Below, one piece after another: positions 2,091-20,967 of a stretch of DNA of 64,000 nucleotides. Position 1 is the stretch's first letter. Each line of letters begins with the position of its first letter. Source of the DNA: Bryum argenteum (lineage: Eukaryota > Streptophyta > Bryopsida > Bryales > Bryaceae). A model generated the notes under the pieces. It was not told the DNA's origin, did not search any database, and was given only the letters and a program-made list of their open reading frames with translations. The stretch is from positions 868,001 through 932,000 of the forward strand of contig CM073326.1 of NCBI GenBank assembly GCA_037043015.1, given 5' to 3'. The position numbers and the translations under genes are program-made.

Positions 2091-2215
2091 TTTTGCTAGG
2101 TTGTAGCAGTAAATTGGGTTATGCTTGGTCTTCTCGGTTTGGTAACTCACAACAATGATTGACACGATAATCGACAGATAAACATGTTGGGGAACAATAA
2201 CAGAGGATCCCATTG

Positions 2216-2678
2216 AGGTCGATGACAACATTTAACCAAGCTTTGCCTGACTCTCTTGGAATAAAACCTATTTCTTCACTAGAATTTTCAGAGACCGTGG
2301 CGTTCCTAACCTGGATAGCAAGCACGTCGCAGCAGGACAACATTACTGAGGTTTCTCTGCGAGAGGTTTAATAAATTCAAAGACAACATCTCGTAGTACA
2401 AATATTCGATGATCTCTAAAGATAAGAATGGATTGATGAAAAGTACCTGGATATCGTCATTGCTCATCTCGTCATCATCGTGAAGGCCCATTGATCCTAG
2501 CGACTGTTGGGTGCAATCTACATCATCACCCAATGTAGGATCATTGCCGAGAAGCGATGCTTCAGTGTAATTGGGAGTGTCCTCGGGAGGATGCGAATCA
2601 TGGCGAACAAGATCAACTAATACATCTTCCATGACCGGAATATCGATATCTTCATGCTCATCCTCTACATCTGTTCAA
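2216..2678 (-). CDS. Two exon-like pieces with a DLNGILC (HAD/FCP1-like) motif, unidentified
   Basis: Read on the minus strand, an exon-like stretch from about 2678 to 2459 encodes an acidic segment that includes EDEHEDIDIPVMEDVLVDL and ends ...MSNDDIQ at a GTACTT donor. It joins in phase to a second stretch starting after the acceptor TATCCAG at about 2314, which continues VRNATVSENSSEEIGF and then WLNVVIDLNGILCYC. The hydrophobic strand followed by DLNG resembles the first motif of HAD-type phosphatases of the FCP1/NLI group, where DLDxT is usual; here the second Asp is Asn. The end of the gene cannot be followed. It may be the start of a separate gene or more exons of the minus-strand gene upstream. 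A single palindrome of the local family lies in the gap before it. Identity is weak; coding nature is moderately supported by acidic composition and phase-matched splice sites. Confidence 0.35.
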
Positions 2679-2774
2679 CGCAATACAAGGTCATTGAAAT
2701 CAGGCAAACACAATGAAGTGTGGTGGAAGGAGGAGTGTGAATCCGAACAGAATGCCTATGTGGCTGATGGGCAA

Positions 2775-2795
2775 TTTAGCTCGAGTCGAGCTAAA
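2775..2795. repeat. Isolated copy of the 23-bp palindrome
   Basis: One copy of the TTTAGCTCGA / free base / TCGAGCTAAA palindrome, with G at the centre (2785). It lies in non-coding DNA between the coding segment ending at 2906 and the next exon-like stretch starting near 2678. It is the leftmost copy seen in the window. Confidence 0.9.
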
Positions 2796-2905
2796 ATGAA
2801 CGTGGTAACGCCTGTATTAATTACAAAAAAATGTTTGAGAGTTTGTATCAAAAAAAGTGTTCTACCGGTTTTTACAACTCAATAACTATAAAGTATACCC
2901 ATTAT

Positions 2906-3783
2906 CTAAGAAGAAGTGGGACCTGTGGTATTCTCTTGCACCTCAGCCTCAGAGTCAGTATTCCGCGGAATTGGCGTAGGTGGATGCGCTGCTGGCTCGA
3001 CGAAAGCAGTGGCTGGAGGTGCAGTGTCAGGAAGAGGGCGTTGCCCCCCATGGAAAGTACCTGCATCTAAACTTTGAGTACTAGGCACTGCAATTGCAGA
3101 AGGCAGAGGAGGAGGAGGAAGTGCAGATGGATTTAAGCCACTTAGTGCTCTACTAAACATATCCATCATATCCAGGTGTCTTCTGTTTGCCTCCTATTCG
3201 CGCTGAGCGTCGCGAGCGCGAAACTCATCAGCCATTCTGAGAATCGCGGCTTGCTCTTCCTCAAGTTTCTTCTGCAGTTCTGAAATCACCGCTGCTTCGG
3301 AGAACCTTGACTTCGGCGATTCCTTGGCCATTGCAGAGCCTTTCCGCTTTCGACTTGCGGAACCCCTGCCACGCGCTAAACCGCTACGCGATTCCGGGGT
3401 ATTTCGCAGATTGTCGGAGCTGTCCTGCGGGAGGTTCTGGAAATCGGGCTGTCGGATCCGCACGGGAGGGGCGTCTACCTCAGCCGACCCTGCTAGGCGC
3501 GCACTGCCTTCCGCCTCGTCTTCCTCGGCGCTAGAGGCAACTTCTTCCACATCATCATCATCTTCTTCTCCTTCGCCGTCATCGCCCTTCATACTGTCGT
3601 CATCAGCTTCCACCTTAGCCCCTTCAGGAGGGCTCTGCCGATGATAGGGAAGGTATTAGCATCGACAGGATATCCGCTGATGCTGAAGTCATTCGGATCA
3701 AGATTAACACCGATCTGATATGCATGGTGTATGTCAACGGAGTCGTCATTGTCGGCTATGACGAAAGATTCAGACGCTATCAT
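2906..3783 (-). CDS. C-terminal exons of the minus-strand gene: acidic, NLS and coiled-coil tail
   Basis: A good acceptor (CGTCGTCCTGCAG) on the minus strand places an exon start at 3783, in the same phase as the donor that ends the upstream exon at 4192. The exon opens MIASESFVIADNDDSVDI. A second frame from about 3640 downward is strongly coding-like: an Asp/Glu-rich run (EGEEDDDDVEEVASSAEEDE), a basic ASRKRKGS patch that could be a nuclear localisation signal, a heptad-like stretch (VISELQKKLEEEQAAILRM), then a Met/Pro-rich tail ending ...TTGPTSS before a stop at 2906-2908. The change of frame near 3640 is either a short intron or decay, and at least one in-frame stop interrupts the tail. 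Acid-rich, coiled-coil tails are common in nuclear chromatin- or DNA-associated proteins. It probably belongs to the ParB-like gene; a separate gene is possible. Confidence 0.45.
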
Positions 3784-3817
3784 CTGCAGGACGACGATGA
3801 GAAGTCAGACAAAGGCA

Positions 3818-4175
3818 TTTAGCTCGATTCGAGCTAAACTACATGCTACGAAGGAAATGAACGAGTTCATAACTTAGAAGGAAATCAGAAGTATCAGAGG
3901 TATCACTTAGTTTAGCTCGACTCGAGGTAAACTACATGTGCAGGAATCCTTGTGCAGGAAGCATGGAACTGATTGAGTTTAGCTCGATTCGAGCTAAACG
4001 TCATTCTCAAGAAAGCAATCAAGGTATGGAATAAATGCGGCTACAACGACATGGAATGACGTAGTTTAGCTCGACTCGAGCTAAACTATAATACGAGCAG
4101 AGCAGACCGAACCGGATTTCAATGATGTCAGGGAAGGGAAGGGTAATGACCCCGTTTAGCTCGAGTCGAGCTAAA
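3818..4175. repeat. Five palindromes filling an intron (408 bp)
   Basis: Palindrome copies begin at 3818 (centre T), 3911 (C, one arm mismatch), 3978 (T), 4065 (C) and 4155 (G), spaced 67-93 bp apart. The inferred intron runs from the GTAAGA donor at 4191 to the CTGCAG acceptor ending at 3784, so the whole array sits inside it. Spacer sequences between copies are unrelated to each other as far as can be seen by eye, whereas the arms are nearly perfect. Confidence 0.85.
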
Positions 4176-4191
4176 CTGGGCTGTATCTTAC

Positions 4192-7100
4192 CATGCTTGC
4201 TGTAACGGCTTTTGATCCGGAATAGATAAGGCAGATAGACTCATTCGGGCCGCAGAAAAGCTTGATGACTTGAAGGTAGAATTCCATTCTCAGCTCGTTG
4301 GGGAACATGCTGTACTCCACCTCATTGTACTTTTGGGGCTTCTCGTACAGAATGTGTTTGGGGGCTGTGTAGATAGATTTTATTTCTCCGCGGATCCTCA
4401 CGGATGTGTGCTTGAGGAAGAGAAGTCGCACGGGCTCCATTGCCTGCCTACTCTTAGCGGCAAACCCTCCAAGACGCTCGTTGGCGGCAGGCTCGTAAAT
4501 GGACTGGATCAGCTCGTATTCCACACCTTCGAAGAACGAACTGGTCTTGGCGAAGTGCTGTACATGCTCAAGGTCCTTCTCATCCCCACATATGAACAGC
4601 CAGACAGGAACAGCCTTGAGAGAAGGCCTATCTTGTCCTCCGAGAACGTTCATGAAAATCTCAAAGAACGGTTTCTCAATAGTAGATTTCGCCTTTCCAG
4701 CAGCTCCAGGAATGAGTCTGAAGTCGATGATCCCGAAATTGATGTCCTCGCCTTCTTTACTCCACGAACCTGCTTCCCAGTCATGAAGCTTCATCGGGTT
4801 CTCCCTTTGGAAGAACCGAGTATGAGCAATTCCACTGGAAGGTTGGAATTTCTTGCGGACTTCAAGGAATACGCGGAAGAACTCTTTCGCGTATGGCGAG
4901 AGAACCTCGCAGCTGCTATTCCGGTGCATTGTCGCCTTCTGGTTGGCGCAGTATGACTCCGGAACATCCCACTCGAGAAGCACTCGCTTCGACGCTTTTG
5001 TGACGTGGTAGTCCTTCTTGAATTTCTTCCACGCCTAAACGTCAAGTTCGTCGCCCTTGAAAATACCGAGCGTAGGATCAATCTTGTGAAGCTGGAGCTG
5101 TGCGATAGCTTTGCGCTTCAATCGTTCTACGTAATCCTTCCAAACGTAGCAGTCCTCGAGATGAGACTTAGGTTGCTTGAGAACAACCTTCGGGTATTTC
5201 AGGGTCCTCGATGGCCCTGACTCGTTCAAGATGTGTCTGCAGAGCTTCTCGTGGTCCCTCTCGGAGAGGTTGCCAAGGAATTTAAAAAACTCTCGATTGA
5301 GAGTTGTATCTTTGTCCGGAAGAAAGCCCTCCTTGTCCTTGAACTTGGATCCGTCCATGGACTCGGGGTCGACGAGGTCTCCTTGGGCGGCGCAAGTAAT
5401 CACAGATTCCCAGAGCTTATACAGGTTCTCTGGTGCAGTGATGATCTTGATCTCGTTAGTAAGGGTAAGCAATTTCTTGCCGCCCTTCTTGTTTAGTTCC
5501 CTTTAATGATTGACGACGTCGATCATTGAGAACCTCTCGCTTACAGCCGCGAAGAATTTCTGCAAAATCGAGTACAGGTAATTCAAGTAAGAATCGACTG
5601 TGGCTATACAATTTAGCTCGAATCGAGCTAAACCAAAGGGATTCATGTTCACAATAATGCATTTTAAGTTTAGCTCGATTCGAGCTAAACTGAACTGCAT
5701 CTGCAGTTTAGCTCGATTCGAGCTAAACACTACTGAATCTGCAGTTTAGCTCGATTCGAGCTAAACATTAACGCAGTGGTGAAGAAAGGCTTACATCGTA
5801 AGCGATTGTTTGGCTTGCAGCTCGCTTTGGCTTAATTCGAAGCCCTGCCACCCCGGTTGCATCACGTTTTGGTGGAGGACACCCGAACTCTACCCACACT
5901 TTCCGAGCGGCGAGGATATTTGTTGCCCACGTCGGTTTAAACTGAGCAAAGTAATTCACTCTGTTATAAAAAGCTGAAATTTTGCGCAGCTTGTCCACAT
6001 CTTTAGTCCAGACTATGTACGCATTCCAAGTCCGGAAGTCCTTCTTAATAGGCTCGGGGACGGTGTCTTTCTGAATCATCTCCTTCGACGCAGCCACGCT
6101 GTGCTGGCCGTTAATGATGTAGAATTCGCAGTCCGTCATATCCCGTTCGTCCTTGGGCTTGAACTTCAAGTCGGGCATGACGCACAGAGTCTGCTTGTGT
6201 GACCGGTCCGGCAAATTGATGAGGTAGTTCAGGAGGCTGGTTTGCCCCCTCTTCTCGAAGGCTCGGATTGTCCACGACGCTGGTGCTTCCTTCATCTTCA
6301 TGGTGTCAATCTCCAATTTCCGCTGGGGATTATTTTCGAAGACGAATGCGTCTTGGCAGTCGGAGAAGAATTTCTGGTATATGACATTGCAGTTGGTGTA
6401 GTCAATGTCTTCTACCTTGTCGACAATCATAGGGATCTCTGAGACGGCGTCGTTGATAGCGTTTGCCAAATCCTCTTCTGATACGAGCTTGTTGCGCCTC
6501 GCGTCATCAGCTAGCTTCCTCGACCGTCTCTTTTGAGGCGATGACAATCCAGGGGTTCCAGAACTATTCGCCCCTGTGGATGTTACCCTCGGGGTTGATG
6601 GCTGGACTCGTGTGGTGGTCCTGCTATCTATGGGACTCCCTGTCCCGGTAAGGCCTGAACGCTCGAAGAGAGGTCGCTGAGCTACTTGTTTTGCTTTCGC
6701 TGCAACAGATGCCTGAATGATGGAGTTGACGACGTTCCTTAGCTTGAAGGATAGAGCTTTTGCTTTTAGCGGTCCATCGTTCTTCGACCTCCACTTCCCT
6801 TCAAGGATTTCAGCTCTGAGAGTGGACTTGACTTCATCGAAATGGGATGCCTCTAAACTCTCGACCATTGCTACAGCATCAAATGGCGTCGCTACTGTGT
6901 TGATGGCTAGGATGAAATTGTAAGGGGTTGACCCTGGAGAAGAACAAATGATCTTGATCACCTCCGGCGACTCGCAATCAAGCTCGGTGATTTTTGTGTC
7001 GACATCGATTATCATATGATCAGCCACAGGCCCTTGGTAGCTTACAGCGACCGTAAGGTTTGGCGTGTGCGCAGCCCAAACCGCTGTCCAGGTTTTGACC

Positions 7101-7210
7101 TTGGTTGCGTCCTTGAATTTGTAGCAATCAAGGTTCAAGGTATCATCTCCATCATCGTCTTGATCCGCCACTGCCCTTGGCTTGAAGAAGTGGGCGAGCA
7201 AGCCCTTCAT
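4192..7210 (-). CDS. ParB/DGQHR-like protein of a palindrome-bearing element (two main exons)
   Basis: Exon 1 runs 7210-5795 (472 codons) and exon 2 runs 5559-4192 (456 codons); both junctions are phase 0 (donor GATGTAAGC at 5794, acceptor TTTTGCAG ending at 5560, donor ATGGTAAGA at 4191). The ATG at 7210 lies 10 bp after an acceptor (GAATGCAG), implying a 5'-leader intron. Residues 1-190 form a mixed fold of unknown type. Residues about 190-240 are Ser/Thr/Pro-rich with a basic PQKRRSRK patch. Around 366-375 sits YIINGQHSVAAS, followed by RTWNAYIVW and LRKISAFYNRVN. The INGQHS loop resembles the conserved DGQHR/GxxH signature of ParB, sulfiredoxin and DndB-type DGQHR proteins; that assignment is by motif only. 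Exon 2 reads as a soluble globular region. A couple of in-frame stops, all TAA or TAG, interrupt exon 2, so this copy may be decaying. The introns and upstream leader carry dozens of copies of one palindrome, suggesting the protein or its partner binds it. Confidence 0.6.
5612..5765. repeat. Four palindromes inside a 235-bp intron
   Basis: Copies begin at 5612 (centre A), 5669 (T), 5707 (T) and 5745 (T), spaced only 38-57 bp apart. The inferred intron is 5794-5560 on the minus strand, so the array makes up most of it. If transcribed, each copy could fold into an 11-bp stem with essentially no loop, or pair with its neighbours. Confidence 0.85.
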
Positions 7211-7277
7211 TCTCTGCTCACTGCATTCATCAAGAAATATTTGAGTTCAGTGAATGGTTTCGAGGTGACCGTAAAAG

Positions 7278-8972
7278 TTTAGCTCGACTCGAGCTAAACT
7301 GACTAGTTATCATCAGTCTCTTTAATTTAAATTGTCACTTATTAAGGGTTGCAGTTTAGCTCGATTCGAGCTAAACTGAGTTACAGTTTTTGCAAGTTAG
7401 GAACTTTGTTTAGCTCGACTCGAGCTAAACTCAAGAGCTAGAAGTTGAGTCATTTTAACATGAGGTTTAGCTCGATTCGAGCTAAACTTACTAGACTATG
7501 GTTTGATGTTAATGTTAATGTTAGCTTACTATTCTAAGGGTCACAGTTTAGCTCGAATCGAGCTAAACAAGAGTAGAGTCTGTGCGCGATATTACCTTAG
7601 TTTAGCTCGACTTGTGCTTAACTCAATAACTAGCAATTGTCTTATGTGAACAATAGGTTTAGCTCGATTCGAGCTAAACTAATTTACAGAGGTTTGCTAT
7701 TAAGTTGTTTTGTCACTTATTAAGGGTTGCAATTTAGCTCGACTCGAGCTAAACTGAGTTACAGTTTGTGCAAGTTAGTAACTTAGTTTAGCTCGACTCG
7801 AGCCAAACTCAACAGCTAGCAATTGTCTCATGTGAACATGAAGTTTAGCTCGATTCGAGCTAAACTTTCTAGACTAAGGTTAGATGTTAATGTTAATGCT
7901 ATCTTACTATACTAAGGGTCACAGTTTAGCTCGATTCGAGCTAAACAAGATTACAGTATGTGCGAGATAAACTCAAGAACTAGCAATGGTCTCATGTGAG
8001 CATTATGTTTAGCTTGATTCGAGCGTAACTGTTGAATCTAAGGTTAGATATTTAGGTTAATTCTAAATTTATAAGGGTCACAGTTTAGCTCGAATCGAGC
8101 TAAACTCAAGTGAGTTTCAGTATGTACGAGTTGGAAGGCTTAGTTTAGCTCGACTCGAGCTAAACTCATTAATTTTCATTGCTCTTATGCGAGCATTTAG
8201 TTTAGCTCGAATCGAGCTAAACTTCATAGCTTAAGGTTAGATATATTTATGTTTACAATCATTTTCAAAACAGGTAAATTCTAACTAATGTAGGTTACAG
8301 TTTAGCTCGAGTCGAGCTAAACTGAACTACAATTGCTGCGAGTTGGCTTCTGTAGTTTAGCTCGGCTCGAGCTTAACTTAAAATATGTTATTAGTCTCTT
8401 ATATAAACGTTTAGTTTAGCTCGAATCGAGCTAAACTTTATAGTCAAAGATTAGATATAATTTCAATTAGTACAATTTTCAATAGTAGTTCTTATCGTAT
8501 GTTTTGTTTGGTCACAGTTTAGGGTCACAGTTTAGCTCGAGTCGAGCTAAACTGAGTTACAGTTAAGGCGATTTGGATGCCTTAGTTTAGCTCGACTCGA
8601 GCTAAACTGAATAGATTAAAATAGTGAACGTGTAGTTTAGCTCGAATCGAACTAAACTTTATAGTCTAATTATCATTACGTTTTTTATGTCTTCCTATTC
8701 ATGTACATTTTAAATTATTTAGGGCCACAGTTTAGCTCGAATCGAGCTAAACTTAGTGACCATTTGCCTGGGTTGGATACTACAGTTTAGCTCGACTCGA
8801 GCTAAACTAAATAGAATCCAATATTCGCCTAAGTATGCGAACGTGTAGTTTAGCTCGAATCGAGCTCAACTTCATACTCTAAGATTAGATATTATTGCGT
8901 TTTTTATCTCGTTCTTAACCAGGACAATTCTACATACTGTCAGGAGCTTAGTTTAGCTCGACTCGAGCTAAA
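7278..8972. repeat. Left palindrome array, 25 copies in a three-site higher-order repeat
   Basis: Twenty-five copies were counted, beginning at 7278, 7355, 7409, 7466, 7547, 7601 (weak), 7658, 7733, 7787, 7844, 7925, 8008 (weak), 8084, 8144, 8201, 8301, 8356, 8415, 8531, 8586, 8636, 8731, 8786, 8849 and 8952. From 7355 on they group into eight tandem units of about 160-230 bp that start near 7355, 7547, 7733, 7925, 8084, 8301, 8531 and 8731. A full unit has three palindromes; the middle one has C at its centre, while the outer ones vary (A, T, G, occasionally C). Units open with a GGGTYRCAG-like lead and close with TTAGAT-like AT-rich DNA. Spacers have drifted in length and sequence while arms stay nearly perfect. 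The array lies just upstream of the ATG at 7210, beyond an acceptor at 7221, so it is probably within a 5'-leader intron of the ParB-like gene. Confidence 0.9.
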
Positions 8973-10289
8973 CTTTCAGCTTCTCAGTATCCATTTTTAC
9001 AGAGTTAGAGGTGGTTTCAGCTTTGCGAGTGATTTCAATTAGCACCTTTCTCCCATTCGAGCCATTTCTGTGAGCTGGAAGGTCCAATTTCCTGATGGTC
9101 GTCTTCGGCCTTGTCGTATGTCTGCACAACATACGAGCCTACGGTTTAAAAACAAAGCAATAACAATCTACAAACTTTGCTGCGATTCTTAGTTTGCAAA
9201 CTACGCTGTCATTACATACTGGTTTCTAAATACTATTACTAGAATCTCAAACTACCAAGTCTGCTGGCACTGAGTTGAGCTGTGGAATGAGGATTTTAAG
9301 TTTTTGTAAATTCTTAGTTTTACCCTTTTAATTCCGTTGTGGATGGTTAAGGGAATGGGGTCATATGGCGTAATAGTATGTTCCAGTAATAGAATGGGAA
9401 TGGCCAGTTCTCATAACCATTTCCCAGTATCGGTTTTAAGTTCCGTTTATGTGAGTCAATGGGCAATTGGTCGAGGCCCGTAGAACGGAGTCAGGTCCGT
9501 TGGTGGGGCCGGTCAGTCAACTGGTTGCGGCCAATTGTGTGTTCGGTCCCAGAAGCTTAATTCCGTTGGGGTCGGTTCAAGTCCGTTCCGTTCCCTTTAG
9601 AAGTCCATTCAGTTAAGAGATCTGGAACGGTGTGTCGCTTGTTTAGTGTTGTTTCGTGGGATGGGTATACATGAGTGAGGAGTTTATTGTCTTTTGTCTG
9701 ACCATGGAGAATTGGCGGCCTAGGGAAGCAAGATAGCGCCCTATTTTACTTTGTGTTTATGATCTTAAGCAAGTGTAAATGTGCCAGTCCGTTCTAATAT
9801 AAATAAAACAAAAATTGTGCCAATTAACCTCCAGATATGAGTATTGTGTGTATATGAATGATTAAGAGAGTTGTGTAGAAGTGTGAGTAACAACATTCCA
9901 GTGACAATTCTACGATTAAGCTTTTACGCCGCGGATCCCCAGTATTCGAACCTTACTTAGTGGAATTCGTTTCCATTACTATACTATTACATGAGCACAT
10001 CAAAGCTTCTTAACAGCTTCTCAAATCTCTGATCATTCACAGTATTCAAAGAATTCAATCTAGCTACAATTGTCTATGCAAATACAAGTCTGTTGCATAG
10101 ATAAATGTATCATAAGCTTGTTGCTATCTAATGGACTATTATTACAGAAACTATCTTACCACACAAAACAAATGGAAATGCTGATGCGCTTCCAGCAACA
10201 AATCTCAATGCTTTTAGTTCTCCCAATTCGCAATCAATCCAACCTGTACGCATGATACAAACAAATAATGCACCACAAACTCAAAAAAA

Positions 10290-10495
10290 AAAGCAGAAAT
10301 GAAATCGCAGAAATGAAGAAATCGCAGCTAGAAATCGCAGCTAGAAAGCATGAGTTTGTGGTTCAAAAAAAATGCAGAAATGAAATCGCAGCTAGAAATC
10401 GCAGCTAGAAAAATGCAGGCATTATATTTGTTTGGAGTTTGTGGTTCAAAAAAAATGAAGAATTGCTTTCTAGCTGCTGAAATCGCAGCAATCAT
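10290..10495. repeat. Short tandem repeat with GAAATCGCAGCTA units
   Basis: GAAATCGCAGCTAGAAATCGCAGCTAGAAA-like strings recur at about 10315-10345 and 10383-10413, each followed by a GTTTGTGGTTCAAAAAAAATG block, with a single diverged unit near 10478. It reads as a local duplication of roughly 70-100 bp. No function is evident. Confidence 0.6.
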
Positions 10496-11491
10496 CAATT
10501 TAAGCTCCACCGGCCTCATGAACTTGGATCTTAGTACGTACTCCCGAAGTGCTCATGCATGACTTTGAAGACAGAAACAAATTCAGCAGGTTGACCTAGC
10601 TGCCCTCTCTCAGTCGCTCAGATTGAGCAATGGAGTCGCTTCCAAGCATGAACACATTGCTTGAGGTTTCTAAACCCTATACAAAAAGCAACATATTTTT
10701 GGAGTAACTGGAAATAGACCTGAAAACCTAACGTACCTCAAACGTGAAAAAAACCCCAACAATCGGAGCTCTGCAAGTCCTCCTCCGACACGGCAACGCT
10801 CCTTCGACAGCGCTCCCCACCAACACCGCTCCGCTCCCTTTCAACTGTGACCCTCCTTGCACTGCGACGCACCTTCAAACACGAACCTCCAACAGCGCTT
10901 TTGAACACCAACCTCCAACAGCGCTCCCTCGAACACCAACCTCCTCGAACTCCGACGCTCCAAAAGCGCCTATTCTATCCGAGCGGTGCAAACCCCAAAA
11001 ACTTACACAAAAAAAGACGAAAAGCAGAACAAAACCCAAACTATTCCTCACTACAGCAACCACGACCTGCAAAAACTACAAACTACACCGAAATCGCTCC
11101 GACTCGTAGGCGCTACACGAAGCGCACTACTCGAGGCGCACTACTCGAGGCAAAAGATAAAGTAATTTCGAAAAGCAGAGACGATGAAACCAAAAATCAA
11201 AGCGGAAAAGCAGGAGCGCAAATGAGAGAATGAAAATGTAAAACCTGAACTCAGAGTGAGAGAAAGGGAGTGGGAGGTGAAAGGCGGCGCTCGTGAATAA
11301 TGATTCATATCCAATCATTTCAATTACTGCCGAGGCCATCATATTTACTGCCGAGGCCATCATTATTACTGATTTACTGCCGAGGCTATCATTATTGCAG
11401 GACAAGCATTTTCAAAAAATTCTGATTTATGAAACCATTTTTCTCTCTAAGTTTAGTACCATAATTAAATTTTCTAACTTCTAAATTTTAA

Positions 11492-12060
11492 TTCATTCAC
11501 TTTTTTTACTCATCTTTTTTTGAGCAACATTAGAATGGTCATTTGTAAACACGCTAAGTTTGATTCTAAGTGTAATAATATAAGTTTCCATTCACTTTTA
11601 TTACTCATCTTTTTTTAAGCTACATTAGAATGATCATTTTAACACGCTAAGTTTAAATGTAGTTGTACGAATATTAGTCATCATTCACTTTTATTACGCC
11701 ATTTTTTTTTAGCAAAATTAGAATGCCAATTCAAACACGACGAGTTTAATTCTAATTGTATGAATATTAGTTTTCATCCACTTTTAGAACTCATATTTTT
11801 TTTATCAATATTAGAATGCTAATTCATAAACACGCTAAGTTTGATTTTAAGTGTAATAATATAAGTTTCCATTCACTTTGATTACTCATCTTTTTATGAG
11901 CTACATTAGAATGATAATTTTTAACACGCTAAGTTTAAATGTAGTTGTACTAATATTAGTTTTCATTCACTTTTGTGACGCCTATTTTTTTTAGCAACAT
12001 TAGAATGCCAATTCAAACACGCTAATGTTTAAATTTAATTGTATTAATATTAGTTTTCTA
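11492..12060. repeat. Six tandem units of about 95 bp forming two 280-bp triplets
   Basis: Units start near 11492, 11590, 11686, 11776, 11870 and 11966. Each has an ATTCACTTTT lead, a T-run, AGCAACATTAGAATG, then ACACGCTAAGTTT. Unit 1 resembles unit 4 (both end AGTGTAATAATATAAG), 2 resembles 5, and 3 resembles 6, so a three-unit block of about 280 bp was duplicated after the units had diverged. No reading frame runs through it. Confidence 0.8.
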
Positions 12061-12350
12061 TTTAGTCTTGTCAATTTTTTGAAACTCCGTTGATGTTAAT
12101 ATTGTATACTCTATTTTCAGTATGTGAACTTTACATTGCAATTCTTCTCACCATTTTCAACCAAGTTCATTTTCAACCAAGATGATTTTAGACGCGTCTA
12201 TTTGCCAAGCGCTTCAAGTTGCTGTGTGAATCACCGTGGAGGAGCCGTGTCCATGGCGGGCATGCTCAAGCACCGTGCGCAATTTAGAAACCACAATTGG
12301 GTAAAGTAGGAGCGGAATCACTACAACCCTATCGACACATAAAGAGGTAG

Positions 12351-12545
12351 ATGTCACACCAAGAATTGGCCCGTGCGTGGCAAATCAAGCACTTGGAGGC
12401 TCCTCCCCCAGGCAAGTTCGTGCTACAACCGTTTCATCAAATAGTTCATCGTATGATTGATCAGCATGATTCCGCTCCGTGCTTGGTTCCTCCATTGAAT
12501 CAATCAAGTAGTTGCTACGCTAAACTGTCGGCAAATGAGACATGA
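12351..12545 (+). pseudogene. Short coding-like fragment, unidentified
   Basis: A 64-codon frame opens MSHQELARAWQIKHLEA and continues with PPPGKFVLQPFHQIVHRMID before a stop. The preceding 120 bp is also less AT-rich than its surroundings. Base composition and amino-acid balance look like a real protein fragment rather than chance, but no family was recognised and there is no plausible intron or start context to extend it. A remnant of an inserted element is the likeliest reading. Confidence 0.25.
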
Positions 12546-14033
12546 AGTTTTTTTTTTAAGTTTTGTATATTAAGCTATAAGAATTGAGTTGAGGTTTAAA
12601 TTTTAAAGAATTGGTTGTGTTTTAAATTTTAAATTTTATTATTCCTTGATATGTGCCTTGTTTACCATAGCGCAATACTTAATATGTAAAATCATTATTA
12701 TTCATTCATTTGTATATCCTATACGTAAGTATTATTTTTTAATTAAAGATTTAAGTGTTTAATTTCCAAGATTTGTCCAATCATTTTAACGTACATAAGT
12801 ATCTCTCTTGATTTAAAATCTTCATATTGGTTTATTTTCCAAATTTTGTAAACCATATAGTACATAAGTATAATTGCATTCAAGTTAGTATAATAGGTTT
12901 AGTTTCTAACTTTTGTCCATATGTAATCACTACATATTTCTAAATAATGCCATGTATTCCAAATATACCTTTACATAGAAATTACATGTACAAGTATATG
13001 TTTCGTTACAAATATATAATATTCTCTATATTAGTAATTATGCCATTTGAACACATTATTATATGAATACATTATGTATAGTAATTTATAGTACATTATT
13101 TAACATAATTATGAATATAGTGCAAAATTTAATCATAATTTCAAAGGTTATCATTCTTATAACATGGTTATAGATAACTACAATTAGAATGTAATTATTA
13201 TTTATTACTATTAACTATTTACGATTGTATATAATTTAAACTAAATAGCTTAGAAGAAGAGAAAGTGCTTAAAATATTAATTTGGAATAAATAGCACATT
13301 TCACATTAAAGGGTGCCCATAATACATCAGTGTCCGTTATAGATAAAAGGATCTATTTAACTGAAGATGACTATTTCATTTTAAGTTCTATATTTGAATC
13401 CTTGACATAAGTTCACCTACAATTGAGCAAATACTTTGGTATATGCTTTGATGTAACATAGCAAGCTATTCTCACTATTTGCACAGAAATTGATAGATAA
13501 TTTAAGGCTTCCTATCAAAGTTACTTATCTCGGAGCATAAAACCTAGCATAAATAATTAAGAATATAGACTTGCTCACGCAAGTTGATTAGATGAACAAA
13601 AGCCTAAAATTCTGATATAAACATACAAAGTAAAGTGTTCGTAATGCTGTAGATGTTGTATGTGATGTTTAGCAATTCAATCTAACCCCTAAACATCCTT
13701 GATACAATATTGTCTAAATCATCAAGAAATACCTTCTTCTACTTCAGGCCCAAAGAAACTCAATCTAAGCATTAATCAGAAGATGCAACCGTGGGATCTT
13801 TAAACTAACTTGACCCTTGACTCTAATAACTAATTTGAACCGTTAATTTTTCTCCAATTTTGAGATTATAATGGTCAAAGTTGGCTGAATTTTTTCCCTG
13901 CGGAAATCCCAAAAAGCCATTTCGGCATTCTTGGATCTTTACGGGTTAAGTATTGAAGATTCACAATATAGTGTTTAGGATTGAGAGTTTCTGGGTATAG
14001 GATTTAGGGTTTATGGTTTAAGGTTTAGAGTTA

Positions 14034-14091
14034 AGGGTTTAGGGTTTAGGGTTTAGGGTTTAGGGTTTAGGGTTTAGGGTTTAGGGTTTAC
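14034..14091 (+). repeat. Interstitial telomere-type repeat (TTTAGGG)n
   Basis: About eight perfect tandem TTTAGGG units, preceded from about 13960 by degenerate relatives (TTTATGG, TTTAAGG, TTTAGAG) and followed by TTTACGG. This is the canonical plant telomere unit, placed internally. Degenerate units on the left suggest an old insertion or repair scar. Confidence 0.9.
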
Positions 14092-15053
14092 GGTTTCCGT
14101 TTTGTGGAGGCATTTGGCAATTTAGTTATCTTTCCATGCTGTTATCACCTGAAGTTAACCATTTTGTTGAAATGCTGATTATACTGTTCAAAATATTTCC
14201 CGTTAAATACATTATATTCCATACATTCATACCTTGATTTTGATGTAATAATATATGATTTATATTATTTGTTGCAAAGCATGTTGAGAGCTTTTTAAGA
14301 AATAGCATACTTATTTGGAGTGTTACATTTTAATACATTTTTGTATGCATTTAAGTTAATATTGTCTTGAGATTGGTAATCAGGTTATTTCAGTTCATCA
14401 TTTTTGAGAATTCAATATTTCTATGTTTTTGAGGTAACTCTTTTTTATTGACAATGAATCATATATAAAACCAAATTTCTTACAAAGCATGGCACATTAT
14501 GAATAATACTCATATTAAATGTATTCGATATGAGGGACTTTGAAATGCCACAATACGCTTAAGAAACACCCAAGTGGAGAAGATGAGTAATTACAATCTA
14601 TTATATACAATATATCCATTTAAGCTGACATGTGAAACAAACCATATCCACATGCAATATAACCCCATGTAGTGAGACTAATAATGAATCAATACACATA
14701 ATCATCAATGTCCATAAAAACAATTATATTAATCGTTTCTCTATATAATGAATAGAACATTGTAAATTTATTTCCTAACTACGGTGAAAATGAGTATTCA
14801 AAACTTAGAAGAATATATCTTTCAAACTTAAACTATTTGAGTATGCCTAACTTTTAATTGCATGGTCAATAATGGCATGATAACTTTGAAATGCATGCCT
14901 TCATTGGAAGCCTATTTCGGCCAATGAATGTAATATTACGATTGATCTTGTAGCAAGGATGTACAGAATTCGTCGAAGTAGGCAGAAATGGCGGGTGTAA
15001 TCCTGCTTGAATTCCCGGATGCTACTTCTATGTACAAATATAGGGAGAAGAAA

Positions 15054-15142
15054 TTTTCCCGCCGGAATCTCACCATCGATTTTCCTGACAAATCACATTT
15101 GTATTTCCCGCCTCATCTCGAGATAAGGTGGAGCGCGGGAAA
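15054..15142. promoter_or_regulatory. Three E2F-like motifs at the inferred first exon of the right gene
   Basis: TTTTCCCGCC at 15054-15063, TTTCCCGCC at 15104-15112 and GCGCGGGAAA at 15133-15142 all match the E2F consensus TTTSSCGC on one strand or the other. They fall within 90 bp, in the least AT-rich part of the region and 160-250 bp before a strong splice donor (GTCAAG/GTAAGA at 15306/15307) that pairs with the acceptor at 17575 next to the start codon of the right gene. E2F sites are known from plant S-phase promoters; the link to this gene is inference. Confidence 0.45.
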
Positions 15143-15635
15143 GGCCAGACGAATCTGAATGACCTCCGAGAACGTGGCCGTGTTGATTCTTTTTTCCTCA
15201 TTTTCTGAAGTTGATGCTCCTCCTTCAGGGTTTTTGGCTCCGTCGGCGTTTCAGATTCCAGCACGCTGCACGTAGGGATCAAGATGAGCTCCACACAAGC
15301 GTCAAGGTAAGACTCCAAGCATATGGCAGTATAGTGAATTGTGTCTCTGTTATCGTACGTGCTTCTTGCATTTTACAATTCAATTTCGGCGTCATAAACC
15401 CTAAACCCAGAGTAGCGTTCCGCATGTGTCGTGGACGCCGTTGCTGTGATGCTTAAGATTTTGTGTTTTCAATGTAAGTGCAGGTTAGCCTTCATTTTCA
15501 TTGCATCCGTCTCGAGTGCGAATCTATTGCTTTCAGGGAATGAGGAGAAGCGGTACTCCGAAATATGCGCCGTAATTCTCGGGATGCCATGTAGCCCGAG
15601 TCGAGAGAAATAGGAGGACTATCAGAGGGTAGCAG

Positions 15636-17517
15636 TTTAGCTCGATTCGAGCTAAATTGCGGGGCTTGTACAGTCGAGGAATTTAGCTCGAATCGAGCTA
15701 AATTACAGGACTTTGCAAGCCCCGCAATTTAGCTCGACTCGAGCTAAACTATGACTAACCGTAGACATAATAGTTTAGCTCGATTCGAGCTAAACAAAAC
15801 GTTCAATAGAGTTGTTTAAAAAATAACCAGTTTAGCTCGAGTCGAGCTAAACTACGGAATTCAAATGGCGCAAACTGTGCCTCAGTTTAGCTCGACTCGA
15901 GCTAAACTAGACGTTTACTTTTGAGAGAATTGACATCCATTCAGTTAAGCTGGACTCGAGCTAAACTAGACGCTTACTTTTGAGAGAATCGAAATCCATT
16001 AAGTTTAGCTCGAGTCGAGCTAAAATAAGGCACCCCACTCGCCCAATATGTTACTCAGTTTAGCTCGACTCGAGCTAAACTGTGACCTTAAGTATGTCTA
16101 AATTTACCTTAAATGAAGATTGAGCTAATGTAAATATTGTAATCCTCAAACAATGAAGTTTAGCTTGACTCGAGCTAAACTAAACGATTTCATTACAATC
16201 ATATGAAATCTGGTAAGTTTAGCTCGAGTCGAGCTAAACTGATGGATCAAACTCGCCCAACATGTAAGTCAGTTTAGCTCGACTCGAGCTAAACCCTGAC
16301 CCTAATTATGTCTGGATTCACCTAAAAAGTAGAGTGAGAGAATGTGAATGTTCTAATCCTCTAACTATGAAGTTTAGCTTTAATAGAGATACACTAACCG
16401 ATTTTAATACAATCATTTGAAATCTGGTAAGTTTAGCTCGAGTCGAGCCAGCCTAGACGTTTGCTTTTGAGAGAATGGAAATGCATGCAGTTTAGCTCGA
16501 GTCGAGCTAAACTGAGGCACCCACTCGCCCAATATGTTACTCAGTTTAGCTCGACTCGAGCTAAACTGCGACCGTAAGTATTTCTGAGTTTACCGTAAAT
16601 GAAGATTGAGCTAATGTAAATATTGTAATCCTCAAACTATGAAGTTTAGCTCGACTCGAGCTACACTAAACGATTTCATTACAATCATATGAAATCTGGT
16701 AAGTTTAGCTCGAGTCGAGCTAAACTGATGAATCACCCTCGCCCAGCATGTAAGTCAGTTTAGCTCGACTCGAGCTAAACCCTGACCCTAAGTATGTCTG
16801 GATTCACATAAAAAGTAGAGTGAGGGAATGTGAATATTCTAATCCTCTAACTATGAAGTTTAGCATTAATCGAGCTACACTAAACGATTTCATTACAATC
16901 ACTTGAAATCTGGTAAGTTTAGCTCGTGTCGAGCTAGACTAGACGTTTGCTTTTGAGAGGATTAAAATTCATTCAGTTCAGCTCGAGTCGAGCTAAACTA
17001 AGGCACCCCACTCGCTCAATATGTTTACGAGTTTAGCTCGACTAAAGCTAGCGCGTGACCCAAAGTATGTCCGAGTTTACCTAAAATGAAGATTGAGCTA
17101 ATGTAAATATTGTAATCCTCAAACTATGAAGTTTAATGATTCGAGCTAAACTAAACGATTTCATTACAATCATTTGAAATCGGTAAGTTCAACTCGAGTC
17201 AAGCTAAACCGATGAATCACCCTCGCCCAATATGCAACTCAGTTTAGCTCGACTCGAGCTAAACTGTGACCCTAAGTAATCCAGAATTTAGCTAAAAAGA
17301 AAATAGAGCTGATTTACTCTATTAAATCCTTAGACTGTGAAGTTTAGCTCGATTCGAGCTAAACTAAATAATTACAGTAGAGGTTCTTGAAGTCTGAAAC
17401 TTAGCATTTGCTCGATTCGAGCTAAATTACAGCACCTCGCAGAGTCGCGCAATTTAGCTTGCCTCGAGCTACATTTGATTACTTCGCAAAGTTGTGTAGT
17501 TAAGCTCGAATCGAGCT
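15636..17517. repeat. Right palindrome array, about 30 copies in 214- and 486-bp higher-order repeats
   Basis: Copies begin at 15636, 15682, 15728, 15774, 15831, 15886, 15945, 16004, 16059, 16159, 16218, 16273, 16373, 16432, 16491, 16545, 16645, 16704, 16759, 16859, 16918, 16977, 17032, 17132, 17188, 17243, 17343, 17406, 17453 and 17500; those at 15945, 16373, 16859, 16918, 17032, 17132, 17188, 17406 and 17453 are degenerate. From 16004 the pattern repeats with a period of 486-487 bp (16004/16491/16977, 16059/16545/17032, 16159/16645/17132 and so on), and within it a 214-bp sub-repeat (16059/16273, 16159/16373, 16218/16432). Centres are mostly G or C here. Spacers are unlike those of the left array. 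The array lies wholly within an inferred 2269-bp leader intron (15307-17575). Confidence 0.9.
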
Positions 17518-17576
17518 ATTGTGACTTTAATGTGACTTTCTTATAACTTATATCTATGTTCCTGTGCATCTGCAGC

Positions 17577-20336
17577 ATGGGCACCTCATCCGCTGAGGAG
17601 GAGTCCGTTGTTCCCCCAGTGAACCCGGATATTCCAGATTTTGAGGTTGTTCCACCTCGACTCTGGTCGGGAAGAACTGTGGCGTTGCACAACAGCGATG
17701 GTCTCAAAATTGCCGAAGGTTTACCTCGGAATTTACGATCCAGTGCCCTTACTGATTCTTCAGGACCCCTCGGTGAATCTATTATTGTGGTGCAAGTTTC
17801 AACTTTGTTTGTGCCTGTGGACAATCCTAACGACTGGATTTACTCATTCAAGTCGTGGCCCATTGATCGAGTTCTTTTGGACGGTGTTAGTCTTTTGCAC
17901 CATACGCAGTGGGATGTGTATAACCGATGGGTTAAAGAACAGGGTCGGGTCAATGGTAGACGCACTCGTACGTATGACAATTCCAAAAGGAATGTTCCTA
18001 CTCAAGCACCTCGCAGAGCAAAAAACTTGTTGACTCAGCAGTCAATCAACGAAGTCGCATCGAATACCTGTTGTAGCCGAAATTGTGTCCAACACTACCC
18101 TAGAGACAAGATAAAGGTTCTTAGGTCTCGCATGTATGAAAACACAACGGTGCAGTTCAGAAATCACATCAAATTAGATGTTCATCGACAATTTCATACC
18201 AACGCTAATGGGCGGAATGTGGTGACACTTGAAGGCATAGACGTATGTCCGTTAGCGTGGATGCAAATTATGGGTGTTAGTTCTAGCGTCTTTTATCGCA
18301 ACGCTTTGAACGCAGCTGCTGGGTTCGAAGCCCAACATCATGGGAATACTGGAAAACGAAAGCCCAGGGGTCATACAGTTGTAGCTTCTGCTGTCTTGGG
18401 CGCATTACTTGCTAGGCATGCTGACCACATGCCTCACAAGTCTCATAGCCTCTCCTCAGGGGAGAAAGTTGTAACAAAGATACTTCCTGCAAGTTTTAAG
18501 TGGAAAAATCAGATTCCGCCTATATGTGAACATCTTGCTGAATGCGGGCTTCCACCAGTGTCAGCTTCAAGCATTAGCAAAATCCGCCGACTTAGCTATC
18601 CTGAGTACTACGCGAAGAGGGCGGGAGACAATTTCGCACGGTGCTCAAAGTGCGATGAGTTTGACTCAATGATGAAGCTCACCTTACCAGGAAGTCAATC
18701 TGCACTTTTATGGTCGAGGAAACTAAGTGCTCACTTGGACTCGGCGTTTGCTCATAGGGATTTGTATTACCTCAATCGTTTTAGGTCAAAGACGATGCCT
18801 CATGAGGTTCTTACTATTATGCATGACAAGATGGACCACTCAAAGACAGCCTCCCCTGCCTTATCCCACAAGGTGAAGAACTTAGATGGTCTCATGAAAT
18901 TGCCTCTAGCAGTAACAGGCATTTTAGCTCATGGACATGTAGATCAGCGCTATGCGCATTTTGGATTAGATATTTTCTCACATGATGCAAATTATACTGT
19001 GGGGTCATTTGCGAAGCTGCTACGCGATCTGGAGGCTCCGCCGAAATCCACCTCCAGACAACTTTTTACTGAGGCATCTTCGCATCCTCTTTACGCAGCT
19101 CTTCTTCATGGTTCGGAGATGTGTTTGGATCCACTTGGCCCGATTCCAGACATTTTGGTTCCACCTAGGCCATTGCCCCCTATATTAAATGTACAAATGG
19201 ACAATGCTGTTAGTGATAACAAAAATAGGTTTGTCTTCAGTTTCTGGTCCCTTCTAGTAGCCAAACGGGTATTTCGAGAAGTATATGTTAATTTTATGCT
19301 AGTTGGTCACACTCATGATGACATAGATGCATTATTTGGTCGTTGGAGCATGGCTTTGCATAAGGAGGATTATCCTACTATCCCTCTTCTCATGAAATCT
19401 TTCATGAAGCTAGAGTCACTTCCTGTCATTCCTCACCTTGTTCAAGAGGTTCCTAACTTCAAATCTTTCATTCAAGAGTGGCTGCTGGAGGGTGATGAAG
19501 CATTGGTTGGACATACAAAAGCGCATCAGTTCAAGTTCTTCCTCGATGCAAGTGGGTGCCCCGTTATGAAGTACAAAATTCTTTGCCATGACGATGAATG
19601 GCTTCCTAGAGGTGATGAGGGGGGCATTAAGTTATGGAAGGAGGATTCAGAGGGTAGATCGCTATGGCCTAGGGGGGTACCACAAGCTGTGCAGCCAATG
19701 CAGATGCGTCATTTGCCGGAGATTGTGAAAGGAGTTTCAGGATTCGTTGACCATTGGGAGCGATTATCACGAGAGTCAATGGAATCACGGCGACTGTACG
19801 AGCCTCTCTCATACTATTGGAGCAACGTAAAGGATGCTCTTTGTATACCTATGGATACACTAATATCCCAGCAACCTGGTATATCGTCAACTCTTGAAGA
19901 AGCCTCGGAGTTGGAACATGGGTTTTGGCCATCAACTCGTCTCGCGCATGCTGTAGAAGATGAGTTTACATTGGAGGGGACGCTTCGTGAAGAGTACGGC
20001 GAGGACGACCACTTTGTAGGTCAAAGACGTGATCGACCAGCTCCGTCATTCCGAGTTGGACGTGACCTTTACAAGGGATATTTTGTTGCACTACGTCCAT
20101 GTGGCACAGATGGCCGTCCATTTTGGATAGGGCGTGCTATGTCTGATCCAAATTCAAACCCAGACTTACCTAATACCGTAGAAATCCAGTTCTTTCGTCC
20201 CATATCACGGGATAGGGATGTTCAAAAGTATTATACAGGTTGGGATGTAAACAAAAAGCTACGTTGGACGGTGGAGAGAGGCGTCGACGTTTCATCTCAA
20301 AGTACGGATGCCATTTTCACAAAGATGGAAATCTAG
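17577..20336 (+). CDS. DUF7869-type transposase-like protein (919 aa)
   Basis: One uninterrupted exon. The ATG at 17577 directly follows an acceptor (GTGCATCTGCAG/C), so it is preferred over the in-frame ATG at 17556, which lies inside the acceptor tract. Residues 1-160 are a variable N-terminus. Cys pairs near 165-170 (CCSRNC) and further on (RCSKCDEFD) look like metal-binding knuckles. Three acidic motifs follow in order: MHDKMDHSKT (Asp about 417), QMDNAVSDNKN (Asp about 542) and VGHTHDDIDALFGRW (578-584). This order matches the plant/animal DUF7869 group, which looks like an RNase H-fold DDE/D enzyme; catalysis is inferred. The C-terminal 300 residues are less conserved in type. No stop or frameshift interrupts the frame, so this copy could be functional. 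The leader intron holds 30 palindromes, and E2F-like motifs sit near its first exon. It probably acts in the nucleus on DNA, perhaps at the palindromes. Confidence 0.75.
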   Translation: MGTSSAEEESVVPPVNPDIPDFEVVPPRLWSGRTVALHNSDGLKIAEGLPRNLRSSALTDSSGPLGESIIVVQVSTLFVPVDNPNDWIYSFKSWPIDRVLLDGVSLLHHTQWDVYNRWVKEQGRVNGRRTRTYDNSKRNVPTQAPRRAKNLLTQQSINEVASNTCCSRNCVQHYPRDKIKVLRSRMYENTTVQFRNHIKLDVHRQFHTNANGRNVVTLEGIDVCPLAWMQIMGVSSSVFYRNALNAAAGFEAQHHGNTGKRKPRGHTVVASAVLGALLARHADHMPHKSHSLSSGEKVVTKILPASFKWKNQIPPICEHLAECGLPPVSASSISKIRRLSYPEYYAKRAGDNFARCSKCDEFDSMMKLTLPGSQSALLWSRKLSAHLDSAFAHRDLYYLNRFRSKTMPHEVLTIMHDKMDHSKTASPALSHKVKNLDGLMKLPLAVTGILAHGHVDQRYAHFGLDIFSHDANYTVGSFAKLLRDLEAPPKSTSRQLFTEASSHPLYAALLHGSEMCLDPLGPIPDILVPPRPLPPILNVQMDNAVSDNKNRFVFSFWSLLVAKRVFREVYVNFMLVGHTHDDIDALFGRWSMALHKEDYPTIPLLMKSFMKLESLPVIPHLVQEVPNFKSFIQEWLLEGDEALVGHTKAHQFKFFLDASGCPVMKYKILCHDDEWLPRGDEGGIKLWKEDSEGRSLWPRGVPQAVQPMQMRHLPEIVKGVSGFVDHWERLSRESMESRRLYEPLSYYWSNVKDALCIPMDTLISQQPGISSTLEEASELEHGFWPSTRLAHAVEDEFTLEGTLREEYGEDDHFVGQRRDRPAPSFRVGRDLYKGYFVALRPCGTDGRPFWIGRAMSDPNSNPDLPNTVEIQFFRPISRDRDVQKYYTGWDVNKKLRWTVERGVDVSSQSTDAIFTKMEI

Positions 20337-20808
20337 AACAAGGCAACCTAGGGGGACGACGGAATGGGGCAAGATATGACTATTTCAATACCGAAATTCA
20401 AATCAATATCATAAAGGCCTCTTTGGGAGAACTTGCCACATCTTCAGAAGAGTAGTATTCCATCAATGATGCTCTACGCATCCGATAGCCGACTCTTAGA
20501 CCCTTTAGTTTGTATTCTAATATATAGTCGTAAGTGAATTACATATTATACTGTATTTTGTTCATTTCCTATTATATATTCAAATTATGGGTTGATGCAA
20601 TCCAATTCTTCATATTACGATGTTGATCCAATCTACGACAAGTGCTTATCATATTGCTAACACAAGGGTCTTAATCACTCTGTTTTATTTTCTTCATCTC
20701 ATGACATGCTTTCTACATAATGTTTTGATCTAAGTGGACCTCCCAATTTAATGGAAATTTTATTTTCATAATACATATGCTTACGGTGTGGCCAATAACT
20801 GAGTGAAT
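20337..20808 (+). other. 3' flank of the transposase-like gene
   Basis: AT-rich sequence following the stop, probably the 3' untranslated region. No canonical AATAAA was seen in the first 250 bp. A short open frame overlapping the end of the gene in another frame (to 20455) is not supported as a gene. Confidence 0.35.
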
Positions 20809-20818
20809 TTTAGCTCGA
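20809..20818 (+). repeat. Half-site of the palindrome
   Basis: TTTAGCTCGA occurs once here, followed by TTGAACTCC rather than the matching arm. It is the only trace of the palindrome family to the right of the transposase-like gene and may mark a decayed site near the right edge of the element. A chance match is possible. Confidence 0.5.
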
Positions 20819-20967
20819 TTGAACTCCATGTATTAATTTGGGAGATTGTTCTTCTCCCATTATAACGAATATGAGGTTTTATATACCATCCAACTCTGAA
20901 TATGACCGTTGCAATTTGAAATTGAAATGCACCTAAACCGTTGGATGCTCAAAGGGGCCATCTGGCC

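What the first reader, a model, noticed from the sequence alone, without database searches (positions are those of the whole stretch)
2775..17517. About 65 copies of one 23-bp palindrome around two divergent genes
The arm GTTTAGCTCGA, one free base and the complementary arm recur in five clusters over 15 kb (1 + 5 + 4 + 25 + 30 copies counted) and, apart from one half-site at 20809, nowhere else in the remaining window. Density is about one per 60 bp inside the clusters. This is far more than known transposon subterminal repeats usually show and looks more like partition-site or operator arrays. I know of no described plant element with this layout.
Basis: seen in the sequence. Interest (0 to 1): 0.92.

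Follow-up and report, generated by a model that had tools for sequence, protein, structure and literature searches.

The report
Giant transposon studded with palindromes
The palindromes are parts of a large jumping gene about 19-22 kb long that occurs in many copies in this genome; they look like docking sites for a protein, probably one the element makes itself, possibly to keep its own copies from being switched off by the host.

Summary
Observation confirmed: 64 copies of GTTTAGCTCGA-N-TCGAGCTAAAC (≤5 mismatches; 36 exact) between 2774 and 17521, none elsewhere in the window except a half-site. They belong to a family of giant DNA transposons: of twelve TIR pairs read (AACC...GGTT), 11 have exact 4-bp target-site duplications. 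Elements carry a DUF7869 putative transposase, a NIF-phosphatase-like gene, and a divergent three-exon gene whose second exon gives a weak model resembling β-class/MT-A70 adenine methyltransferases, with DPPW replaced by DFRL. In ten copies of two subfamilies, 0 of 437 palindromes lie in coding matches; both introns and both 5' regions are always occupied. Arms are conserved, the centre is free in subfamily A, and the one-base spacer holds in 2885 of 2886 exact cases, although synonymous sites of the genes are saturated or nearly so between subfamilies. Of 172 listed genome places, 134 lie within 10 kb of a detected gene-1 exon. Most likely the palindromes are sites for a dimeric, element-encoded regulator of its own copies, analogous to VANC anti-silencing in Arabidopsis VANDALs. 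The binder and the effect are inferred. Partition sites are not supported; the sites are not subterminal.

The parts
2154..20878 (.). Window copy of the giant transposon (subfamily A), left end lost: element sequence starts at 2154-2189, an internal stretch of about 0.8 kb is missing, then it is continuous from 2183
   Evidence: BLAST against a complete copy, in which 2.0 kb lie between the left TIR and the point matching 2183
20855..20878 (-). Right terminal inverted repeat (1 mismatch to AACCTCGTATTCGTTATANTGGGA)
   Evidence: 11 of 12 TIR pairs read elsewhere in the genome have exact 4-bp TSDs
17556..20336 (+). Putative transposase gene, 926 aa, open, no intron; DUF7869
   Evidence: Pfam PF25273 E 2.1e-41; dN/dS 0.07-0.24 between copies
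5795..7210 (-). Gene 1 exon 1 (472 codons to the splice donor), no known family
   Evidence: dN/dS 0.07-0.28 where dS could be estimated
4192..5559 (-). Gene 1 exon 2, beta-class adenine-methyltransferase-like by a weak model; interrupted by in-frame stops in the window copy
2906..3783 (-). Gene 1 exon 3 (frame broken in the window copy)
2164..2674 (-). Remnant of the 5' part of gene 2 (NIF phosphatase-like)
   Evidence: match 2164-2319; open frame to 2674; NIF PF03031 E 1.2e-14 in subfamily-B copy B_C10
2774..2796 (.). Single palindrome between the end of gene 1 and the start of gene 2
   Evidence: exactly 1 palindrome in this gap in 9 of 9 copies where both neighbouring genes were matched
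3817..4176 (.). 5 palindromes inside gene 1 intron 2 (3784-4191)
5611..5766 (.). 4 palindromes inside gene 1 intron 1 (5560-5794)
7277..8973 (.). 25 palindromes upstream of gene 1
15635..17521 (.). 29 palindromes (≤5 mismatches) upstream of the transposase gene
9000..15600 (.). Internal region of the element without palindromes; holds 93-bp tandem repeats (11492-12058) and a TTTAGGG run (14003-14086)
20808..20818 (+). Half-site near the right TIR, present in more or less degenerate form in 6 of 6 subfamily-A copies

Best explanation
The palindromes are cis-acting sites of a giant DNA transposon: TIR AACC(T/C)C.TATTCGTTATA, 4-bp target-site duplication, DUF7869 putative transposase. SHOWN: element structure, absence of the sites from coding matches, and strong constraint on the arms. 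INFERRED: each site binds a homodimer, one subunit per 11-bp arm with one free base between; the binder is made by the element, most likely gene 1, whose second exon resembles an adenine methyltransferase without its catalytic motif. INFERRED: by occupying both introns, both 5' regions and the gap before gene 2 the protein marks all copies of its own family and keeps them transcribable, either by blocking or reversing host silencing (as VANC does for Arabidopsis VANDALs) or by acting as a self-specific activator. Rough confidence by step: transposon 0.97; dimeric protein site 0.85; element-encoded binder 0.58; anti-silencing or self-activation 0.45.
For: TIR pairs and TSDs: 11 of 12 pairs read have an exact 4-bp TSD, the twelfth 3 bp. 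TIR pattern 141+133 times, 0 in the control. Layout: in 10 copies (6 A, 4 B) 437 palindromes, 0 with the centre in a coding match; intron 1, intron 2 and both 5' regions occupied in 10 of 10. Splice sites line up between A and B: donor 1 GT in 10 of 10, acceptor 1 AG in 7 of 9 shown, donor 2 in 9 of 10, acceptor 2 in 10 of 10. Constraint (sites at ≤6 mismatches, n = 319 A and 126 B): inner ten arm positions 1.6-2.0 bits, outermost 1.1-1.7; centre 0.03 bit in A. Spacer of exactly 1 in 2885 of 2886 exact matches with spacer 0-12. A versus B: exon-1 and exon-2 dS unestimable or above 2.5, transposase dS about 1.5, yet the same palindrome. No excess of pair-keeping double changes in the inner positions. 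Exon-2 model: the 50 rows shown by Foldseek and the 50 shown by VIA-align are all from entries of beta-class/MT-A70 adenine methyltransferases. VANC21 binds tandemly repeated short motifs in introns, intergenic and terminal non-coding regions of VANDAL21, and VANC proteins induce loss of silent marks (passages of PMC5735166 and PMC10398659).
Confidence: 0.46

Rival explanations
1. Transposition-complex sites: a TnpA-like protein or the transposase itself binds the palindromes to pair and prepare the ends, as proposed for subterminal repeats of CACTA elements.
For: Conserved, repeated sites; a degenerate half-site sits about 60 bp from the right end. CACTA elements of similar size have arrays (20.5-kb Tgmt*: 4 repeats within 159 bp of one end and 24 within 732 bp of the other; passages of PMC2613891).
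Against: No palindrome within 680 bp of the left or 3449 bp of the right end of a complete A copy, 2391 and 3416 bp in a B copy; presence in both introns of gene 1.
Confidence: 0.15
2. Host-protein sites: the palindrome is the target of a host transcription factor or silencing factor, exploited or suffered by the element.
For: Sites lie in promoters and introns; a host factor could equally keep a motif unchanged across subfamilies A and B whose proteins have diverged. 38 of 172 listed places are not near a detected gene-1 exon, and what lies there is unknown.
Against: 134 of those 172 places are near a gene-1 exon although the exon lists are capped. A motif that attracts silencing would not be conserved by the element.
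Confidence: 0.18
3. Structural or neutral repeat: hairpins in RNA or DNA, or an array kept alike only by recent tandem duplication.
For: Arrays do expand as tandem units; the RNA hairpin is predicted at -12.3 kcal/mol; some outermost positions changed on both sides.
Against: Flanks of the sites diverge while the arms do not, and in A the centre base is free. Among distinct variants, inner double changes that keep pairing number 1 of 9 (A) and 2 of 8 (B) against 2.2 and 1.1 in shuffles. Same intervals occupied in A and B.
Confidence: 0.08
4. Partition-like (ParB-parS) sites that help segregate an extrachromosomal form or cluster the copies.
For: Clustered palindromes; exon 1 has a conserved NGQH motif that recalls ParB/DGQHR proteins (recalled, my reading).
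Against: No ParB match for exon 1 in four profile libraries, no ParA match in the parts scanned with Pfam. hhalign with SopB relatives gave probability 0.2 (6 close relatives, so low power). Elements are integrated with TSDs.
Confidence: 0.04

Closest known systems
VANDAL21/VANDAL6 with VANC anti-silencing proteins (Arabidopsis); passages of PMC5735166 and PMC10398659
   Same: DNA transposon with several genes; short motif repeated, often in tandem, in introns, intergenic and other non-coding parts and not in exons; arrays expand and contract
   Different: Here a 23-27-bp palindrome instead of a 9-base motif; motif shared by two subfamilies whose gene-1 synonymous sites are saturated; putative transposase matches DUF7869 only (that VANDALs are Mutator-like is recalled); candidate binder has no Pfam match
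CACTA/En-Spm elements with subterminal repeats, e.g. 20.5-kb Tgmt* (passages of PMC2613891)
   Same: Similar size; repeated, partly palindromic motifs; transposase plus a presumed DNA-binding protein
   Different: No CACTA termini, 4-bp instead of 3-bp TSD, sites internal and intronic rather than subterminal
KDZ, Plavaka and other fungal transposons that carry TET/JBP dioxygenases (passages of PMC12730594)
   Same: DNA transposons that carry accessory genes thought to counter host methylation
   Different: No TET/JBP domain in the parts scanned; TSD 4 bp (paper: Zisupton 8 bp, Kyakuja 7 bp); the passages I saw mention no palindrome arrays
MT-A70/beta-class adenine methyltransferases (MTA1, METTL3-METTL14, M1.HpyAVI, RsrI)
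   Same: Exon-2 model aligns over about residues 225-443
   Different: DFRL in 7 of 7 aligned sequences of both subfamilies where DPPW is expected, so probably not catalytic

Membership tests
DNA transposon with TIRs | Terminal inverted repeats bounded by target-site duplications | tested here: met
   11 of 12 TIR pairs read have an exact 4-bp TSD; pattern 141+133 in the genome, 0 in the control
DUF7869 family | Pfam PF25273 above the gathering score | tested here: met
   142.1 bits against cut-off 26; that DUF7869 is a transposase is inferred from its place in the element
CACTA/En-Spm | CACTA termini and 3-bp TSD | tested here: not met
   Termini AACC...GGTT, TSD 4 bp
CACTA/En-Spm | Repeats in the subterminal regions | tested here: not met
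   Outermost palindromes 680/3449 bp (A_C6b) and 2391/3416 bp (B_C10) from the ends; only a half-site lies near the right end in 6 of 6 A copies
VANDAL/VANC system | Repeated motif in non-coding parts including introns, absent from exons | tested here: met
   0 of 437 palindromes in coding matches; both introns occupied in 10 of 10 copies
VANDAL/VANC system | Motif binds an element-encoded protein that removes silent marks | not testable with these tools
   No binding or methylation data
VANDAL/VANC system | Motif differs between related families | tested here: not met
   A and B share the 23-bp core; A extends it by 1 and B by 2 conserved bases per side
VANDAL/VANC system | VANC protein homologue | not tested
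   No VANC sequence was compared
ParB-parS partition | ParB domain in the candidate binder | tested here: inconclusive
   Exon 1: no ParB hit in Pfam, NCBIfam, PHROGs or PADLOC; hhalign with SopB relatives probability 0.2, low power
ParB-parS partition | ParA-type ATPase in the same unit | tested here: not met
   No such domain among the element ORFs scanned with Pfam; not every ORF was scanned
beta-class/MT-A70 adenine methyltransferase (gene 1, exon 2) | Fold | tested here: inconclusive
beta-class/MT-A70 adenine methyltransferase (gene 1, exon 2) | Catalytic DPPW/DPPY motif | tested here: not met
   DFRL in 7 of 7 sequences; the correspondence is inferred from aligned ranges, the motif itself is recalled
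Sola and other superfamilies with 4-bp TSD | Related transposase | not testable with these tools
   No Repbase proteins held; that Sola has a 4-bp TSD is recalled

The most novel reading that the evidence does not exclude
A transposon took over a DNA adenine methyltransferase, let its catalytic site lapse and turned it into a sequence-specific self-recognition factor that reads about 20-65 near-identical palindromes placed in the introns and 5' regions of the element, so that all its copies are spared silencing together: a second anti-silencing system of plants, independent of VANC and with a conserved rather than a fast-changing address.
Probability: 0.25. Interest if true: 0.85.

Novelty: new variant of a known kind. 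Interest (0 to 1): 0.6.

Why it matters
If the inference holds, it would show that anti-silencing through repeated self-address sites arose more than once among plant transposons, and that the address can be long, symmetric and stable. It would also give a compact tool: a 23-bp site and one protein to bring a chosen effect to chosen DNA. Even without that, the element is a multi-copy giant transposon family in which a DUF7869 gene is tied to TIRs and 4-bp TSDs; DUF7869 is in no paper of the held library, and the listings of searches showed no description of such an element.

Tried and rejected
Partition sites: see rivals; four profile libraries for exon 1 and hhalign with SopB relatives gave no ParB. 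My early reading of NGQHS in exon 1 as ParB/DGQHR-like stays an untested impression; the structure model of exon 1 is unusable and its PDB search gave nothing credible. PADLOC gave weak matches for exon 1 that I did not follow: PDC-S37 in 6 of 11 sequences (best E 0.0088), PDC-M66A and Csm6 in one each.

Hairpin function: no excess of pair-keeping double changes at the inner ten positions (outermost position left out, distinct variants only; double changes of any kind were somewhat above the shuffles, 9 against 5.9 and 8 against 3.4). Helical phasing of the spacings: resultant 0.30-0.59 at 10-11 bp, but unit lengths are inherited by tandem duplication, so not interpretable. CpG depletion as a trace of methylation: 5 of 10 copies, inconclusive.

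Relatives elsewhere: viral contigs gave none for the transposase or exon 2. Solved-structure sequence searches with exon 1, exon 2 and the transposase gave no credible match. Literal search for the palindrome arms in papers gave 99 papers; the 10 listed have other subjects and I opened none.

The palindrome-to-gene link was counted on the 100 places listed (first 1.8 Mb of contig C1) and the 72 further ones (C1, 3.0-15.1 Mb); the remaining exact copies were never listed. A search with the B-type transposase (50 scored) showed no transposase copy at the unexplained places; nine of them (C1, 9.56 Mb) lie a few kb from a B-type TIR. In one search one palindrome of copy B_C3 lies right of the homologous region and is probably outside the element. 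In dN/dS codons with gaps or stops were left out, and pairs with unestimable dS are not counted. Exon-1 and exon-2 alignments hold only copies whose frame is open.


Full report
WHAT IS THERE. The palindrome GTTTAGCTCGA-N-TCGAGCTAAAC is real: 36 exact and 64 copies with up to 5 mismatches between 2774 and 17521, in clusters of 1, 5, 4, 25 and 29, and one half-site at 20808. The genome behind the window (258.8 Mb, 25 contigs, unnamed) holds 2885 exact copies and 10,146 with up to 3 mismatches; the reversed pattern is found 0 times.

IT IS A TRANSPOSON. Protein searches of the own genome found many copies of both divergent genes. I fetched nine further copies (five close ones, with the window copy here subfamily A, and four of a diverged subfamily B); in the ten copies the two genes lie about 8-13 kb apart and divergent. 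I aligned them with the window copy. Homology ends on the right at ...GAATACGAGGTT. A matching inverted terminus AACCTCGTATTCGTTATA lies on the left of a complete copy. The TIR pattern occurs 141 + 133 times in the genome (up to 3 mismatches; 0 in the control), repeatedly as pairs 19-20 kb apart. Twelve pairs were read: eleven in subfamily A (ten by small fetches, one in hand) and one B copy. In 11 of 12 the four bases outside the two ends are identical, and the eleven differ from each other (GTCT, ACAG, GCAT, AAAT, ATTC, AACT, ACAA, CACC, TATG, TTCT; ATAC in the B copy); the twelfth matches over 3 bases. So this is a DNA transposon of 19.0 kb (A_C6b) to 22.0 kb (B_C10) with a 4-bp target-site duplication. 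The window copy has lost its left end: element sequence begins at 2154, and about 0.8 kb is missing at 2183.

ITS GENES. (a) Plus strand 17556-20336: 926 aa, open, no intron, Pfam DUF7869 (E 2.1e-41), by position the transposase (inference). (b) Minus strand 7210-2906: gene 1, three exons. Splice sites lie at the same places in A and B: donor 1 in 10 of 10 copies, acceptor 1 in 7 of 9 shown, donor 2 in 9 of 10, acceptor 2 in 10 of 10. Exon 1 has no Pfam, NCBIfam or PHROGs family, and in PADLOC only weak matches, PDC-S37 in 6 of 11 sequences with best E 0.0088; exon 2 has none in Pfam or PHROGs. (c) To the left, on the minus strand, a NIF phosphatase-like gene (PF03031 E 1.2e-14 in copy B_C10), of which the window keeps only the 5' part. 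dN/dS between copies is 0.07-0.30 for exons 1 and 2 of gene 1 and for the transposase, wherever it could be estimated, so the proteins were under selection. In the window copy gene 1 is broken while the transposase frame is open.

THE SITES. In ten copies (6 A, 4 B) 437 palindromes (≤5 mismatches) were placed against coding matches: 0 have their centre in one. Intron 1 holds 1-8, intron 2 holds 1-5, the region between gene 1 and the transposase 16-54, in two groups next to the two genes. The gap between gene 2 and gene 1 holds exactly one in the nine copies where both were matched; in the tenth (A_C1a) gene 2 was not matched and no palindrome was found there. The information profile is sharp: inner ten arm positions 1.6-2.0 bits, outermost 1.1-1.7; one more conserved base per side in A (1.1-1.25 bits) and two in B (1.4-1.8); beyond that at most 0.45 bit in A and 0.93 in B. 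The centre is free in A (0.03 bit) and mostly G or C in B (122 of 126). A scan with any spacer from 0 to 12 finds 2886 exact sites, of which 2885 have spacer 1. A and B exons 1 and 2 are beyond or near saturation at synonymous sites and the transposase has dS about 1.5, yet the palindrome is the same. Inner arm changes are not compensatory more often than shuffled ones. These facts point to a protein that binds DNA as a symmetric dimer and needs both arms at fixed distance.

LINK TO THE GENES. Of the first 100 exact palindromes in the genome listing (C1, 0.2-1.8 Mb), 91 lie within 10 kb of a detected gene-1 exon; 9 (six at 511 kb, one at 1409 kb, two at 1793 kb) do not. A second list shows 72 further places on C1 (3.0-15.1 Mb): 43 are within 10 kb of such an exon and 29 are not (3.0-3.3, 6.2-6.3, 9.46, 9.56 and 12.88 Mb). 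Together 134 of 172. The exon lists are capped at about 90 scored candidates out of about 1000, so exons may be missed; nine of the 29 lie a few kb from a B-type TIR, and no transposase copy was listed at any of them. What lies at the rest is unknown.

HOW IT MOST LIKELY WORKS. The sites are internal, not subterminal (680 and 3449 bp from the ends in A_C6b; 2391 and 3416 in B_C10), so they are unlikely to be end-pairing sites. They sit in the introns and 5' regions of the genes. The closest described behaviour is VANC of Arabidopsis VANDALs: VANC21 sits on tandemly repeated motifs in introns, intergenic and terminal non-coding regions of VANDAL21 and causes loss of DNA methylation there, with effects that spread over the element (passages read of PMC5735166 and PMC10398659). 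I therefore propose a self-specific regulator encoded by the element, probably gene 1, that keeps its copies transcribable. Unlike VANC motifs, the site here did not change between subfamilies, so I do not file it as a VANC system; it may work like one. Host-factor sites, transposition-complex sites, and structural repeats remain as rivals.

NOVELTY. DUF7869 is in no paper of the held library. The other searches were by key terms, and I saw capped listings, plus the passages cited of PMC5735166, PMC10398659, PMC12730594, PMC4455052 and PMC2613891; none showed this element. Subscription literature and Repbase were not available. The kind (giant transposon with accessory genes and repeated regulatory sites) is known; the combination is new to me.

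Noticed in passing
window 14003-14086: A short run of the plant telomere-type repeat TTTAGGG inside the element: 3-12 units in 6 of 6 subfamily-A copies; in 4 of 4 subfamily-B copies 3-7 units in the other orientation (CCCTAAA).
   Followed up: partly
window 11492-12058: 93-bp tandem repeats in the middle of the element, much expanded in another copy (L033/L034).
   Followed up: no
genome contig C1: 38 of 50 transposase matches listed sit on contig C1, which is 44 of 259 Mb; perhaps a repeat-rich or sex chromosome.
   Followed up: no
transposase versus gene 1, subfamilies A and B: The transposase differs less between A and B (dS about 1.5) than gene 1 (beyond or near saturation), which may mean exchange between subfamilies.
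   Followed up: no
genome C1:511444-511676, 1409277, 1792767-1792824, 6319861-6320023, 12879869-12880763 and others: Palindromes without a detected gene-1 exon within 10 kb, some with a 35-bp period; fragments, missed copies or another family.
   Followed up: partly
window 20973-21126: GC-rich 20/40-bp tandem repeat just outside the right end.
   Followed up: no
window 52747-54441 (-): Open frame of 564 aa with a weak TFIIA-like match, E 2e-07 but below Pfam's cut-off.
   Followed up: no
window 1-2150: Sequence left of the element does not match the complete element copy compared; possibly another repeat.
   Followed up: no
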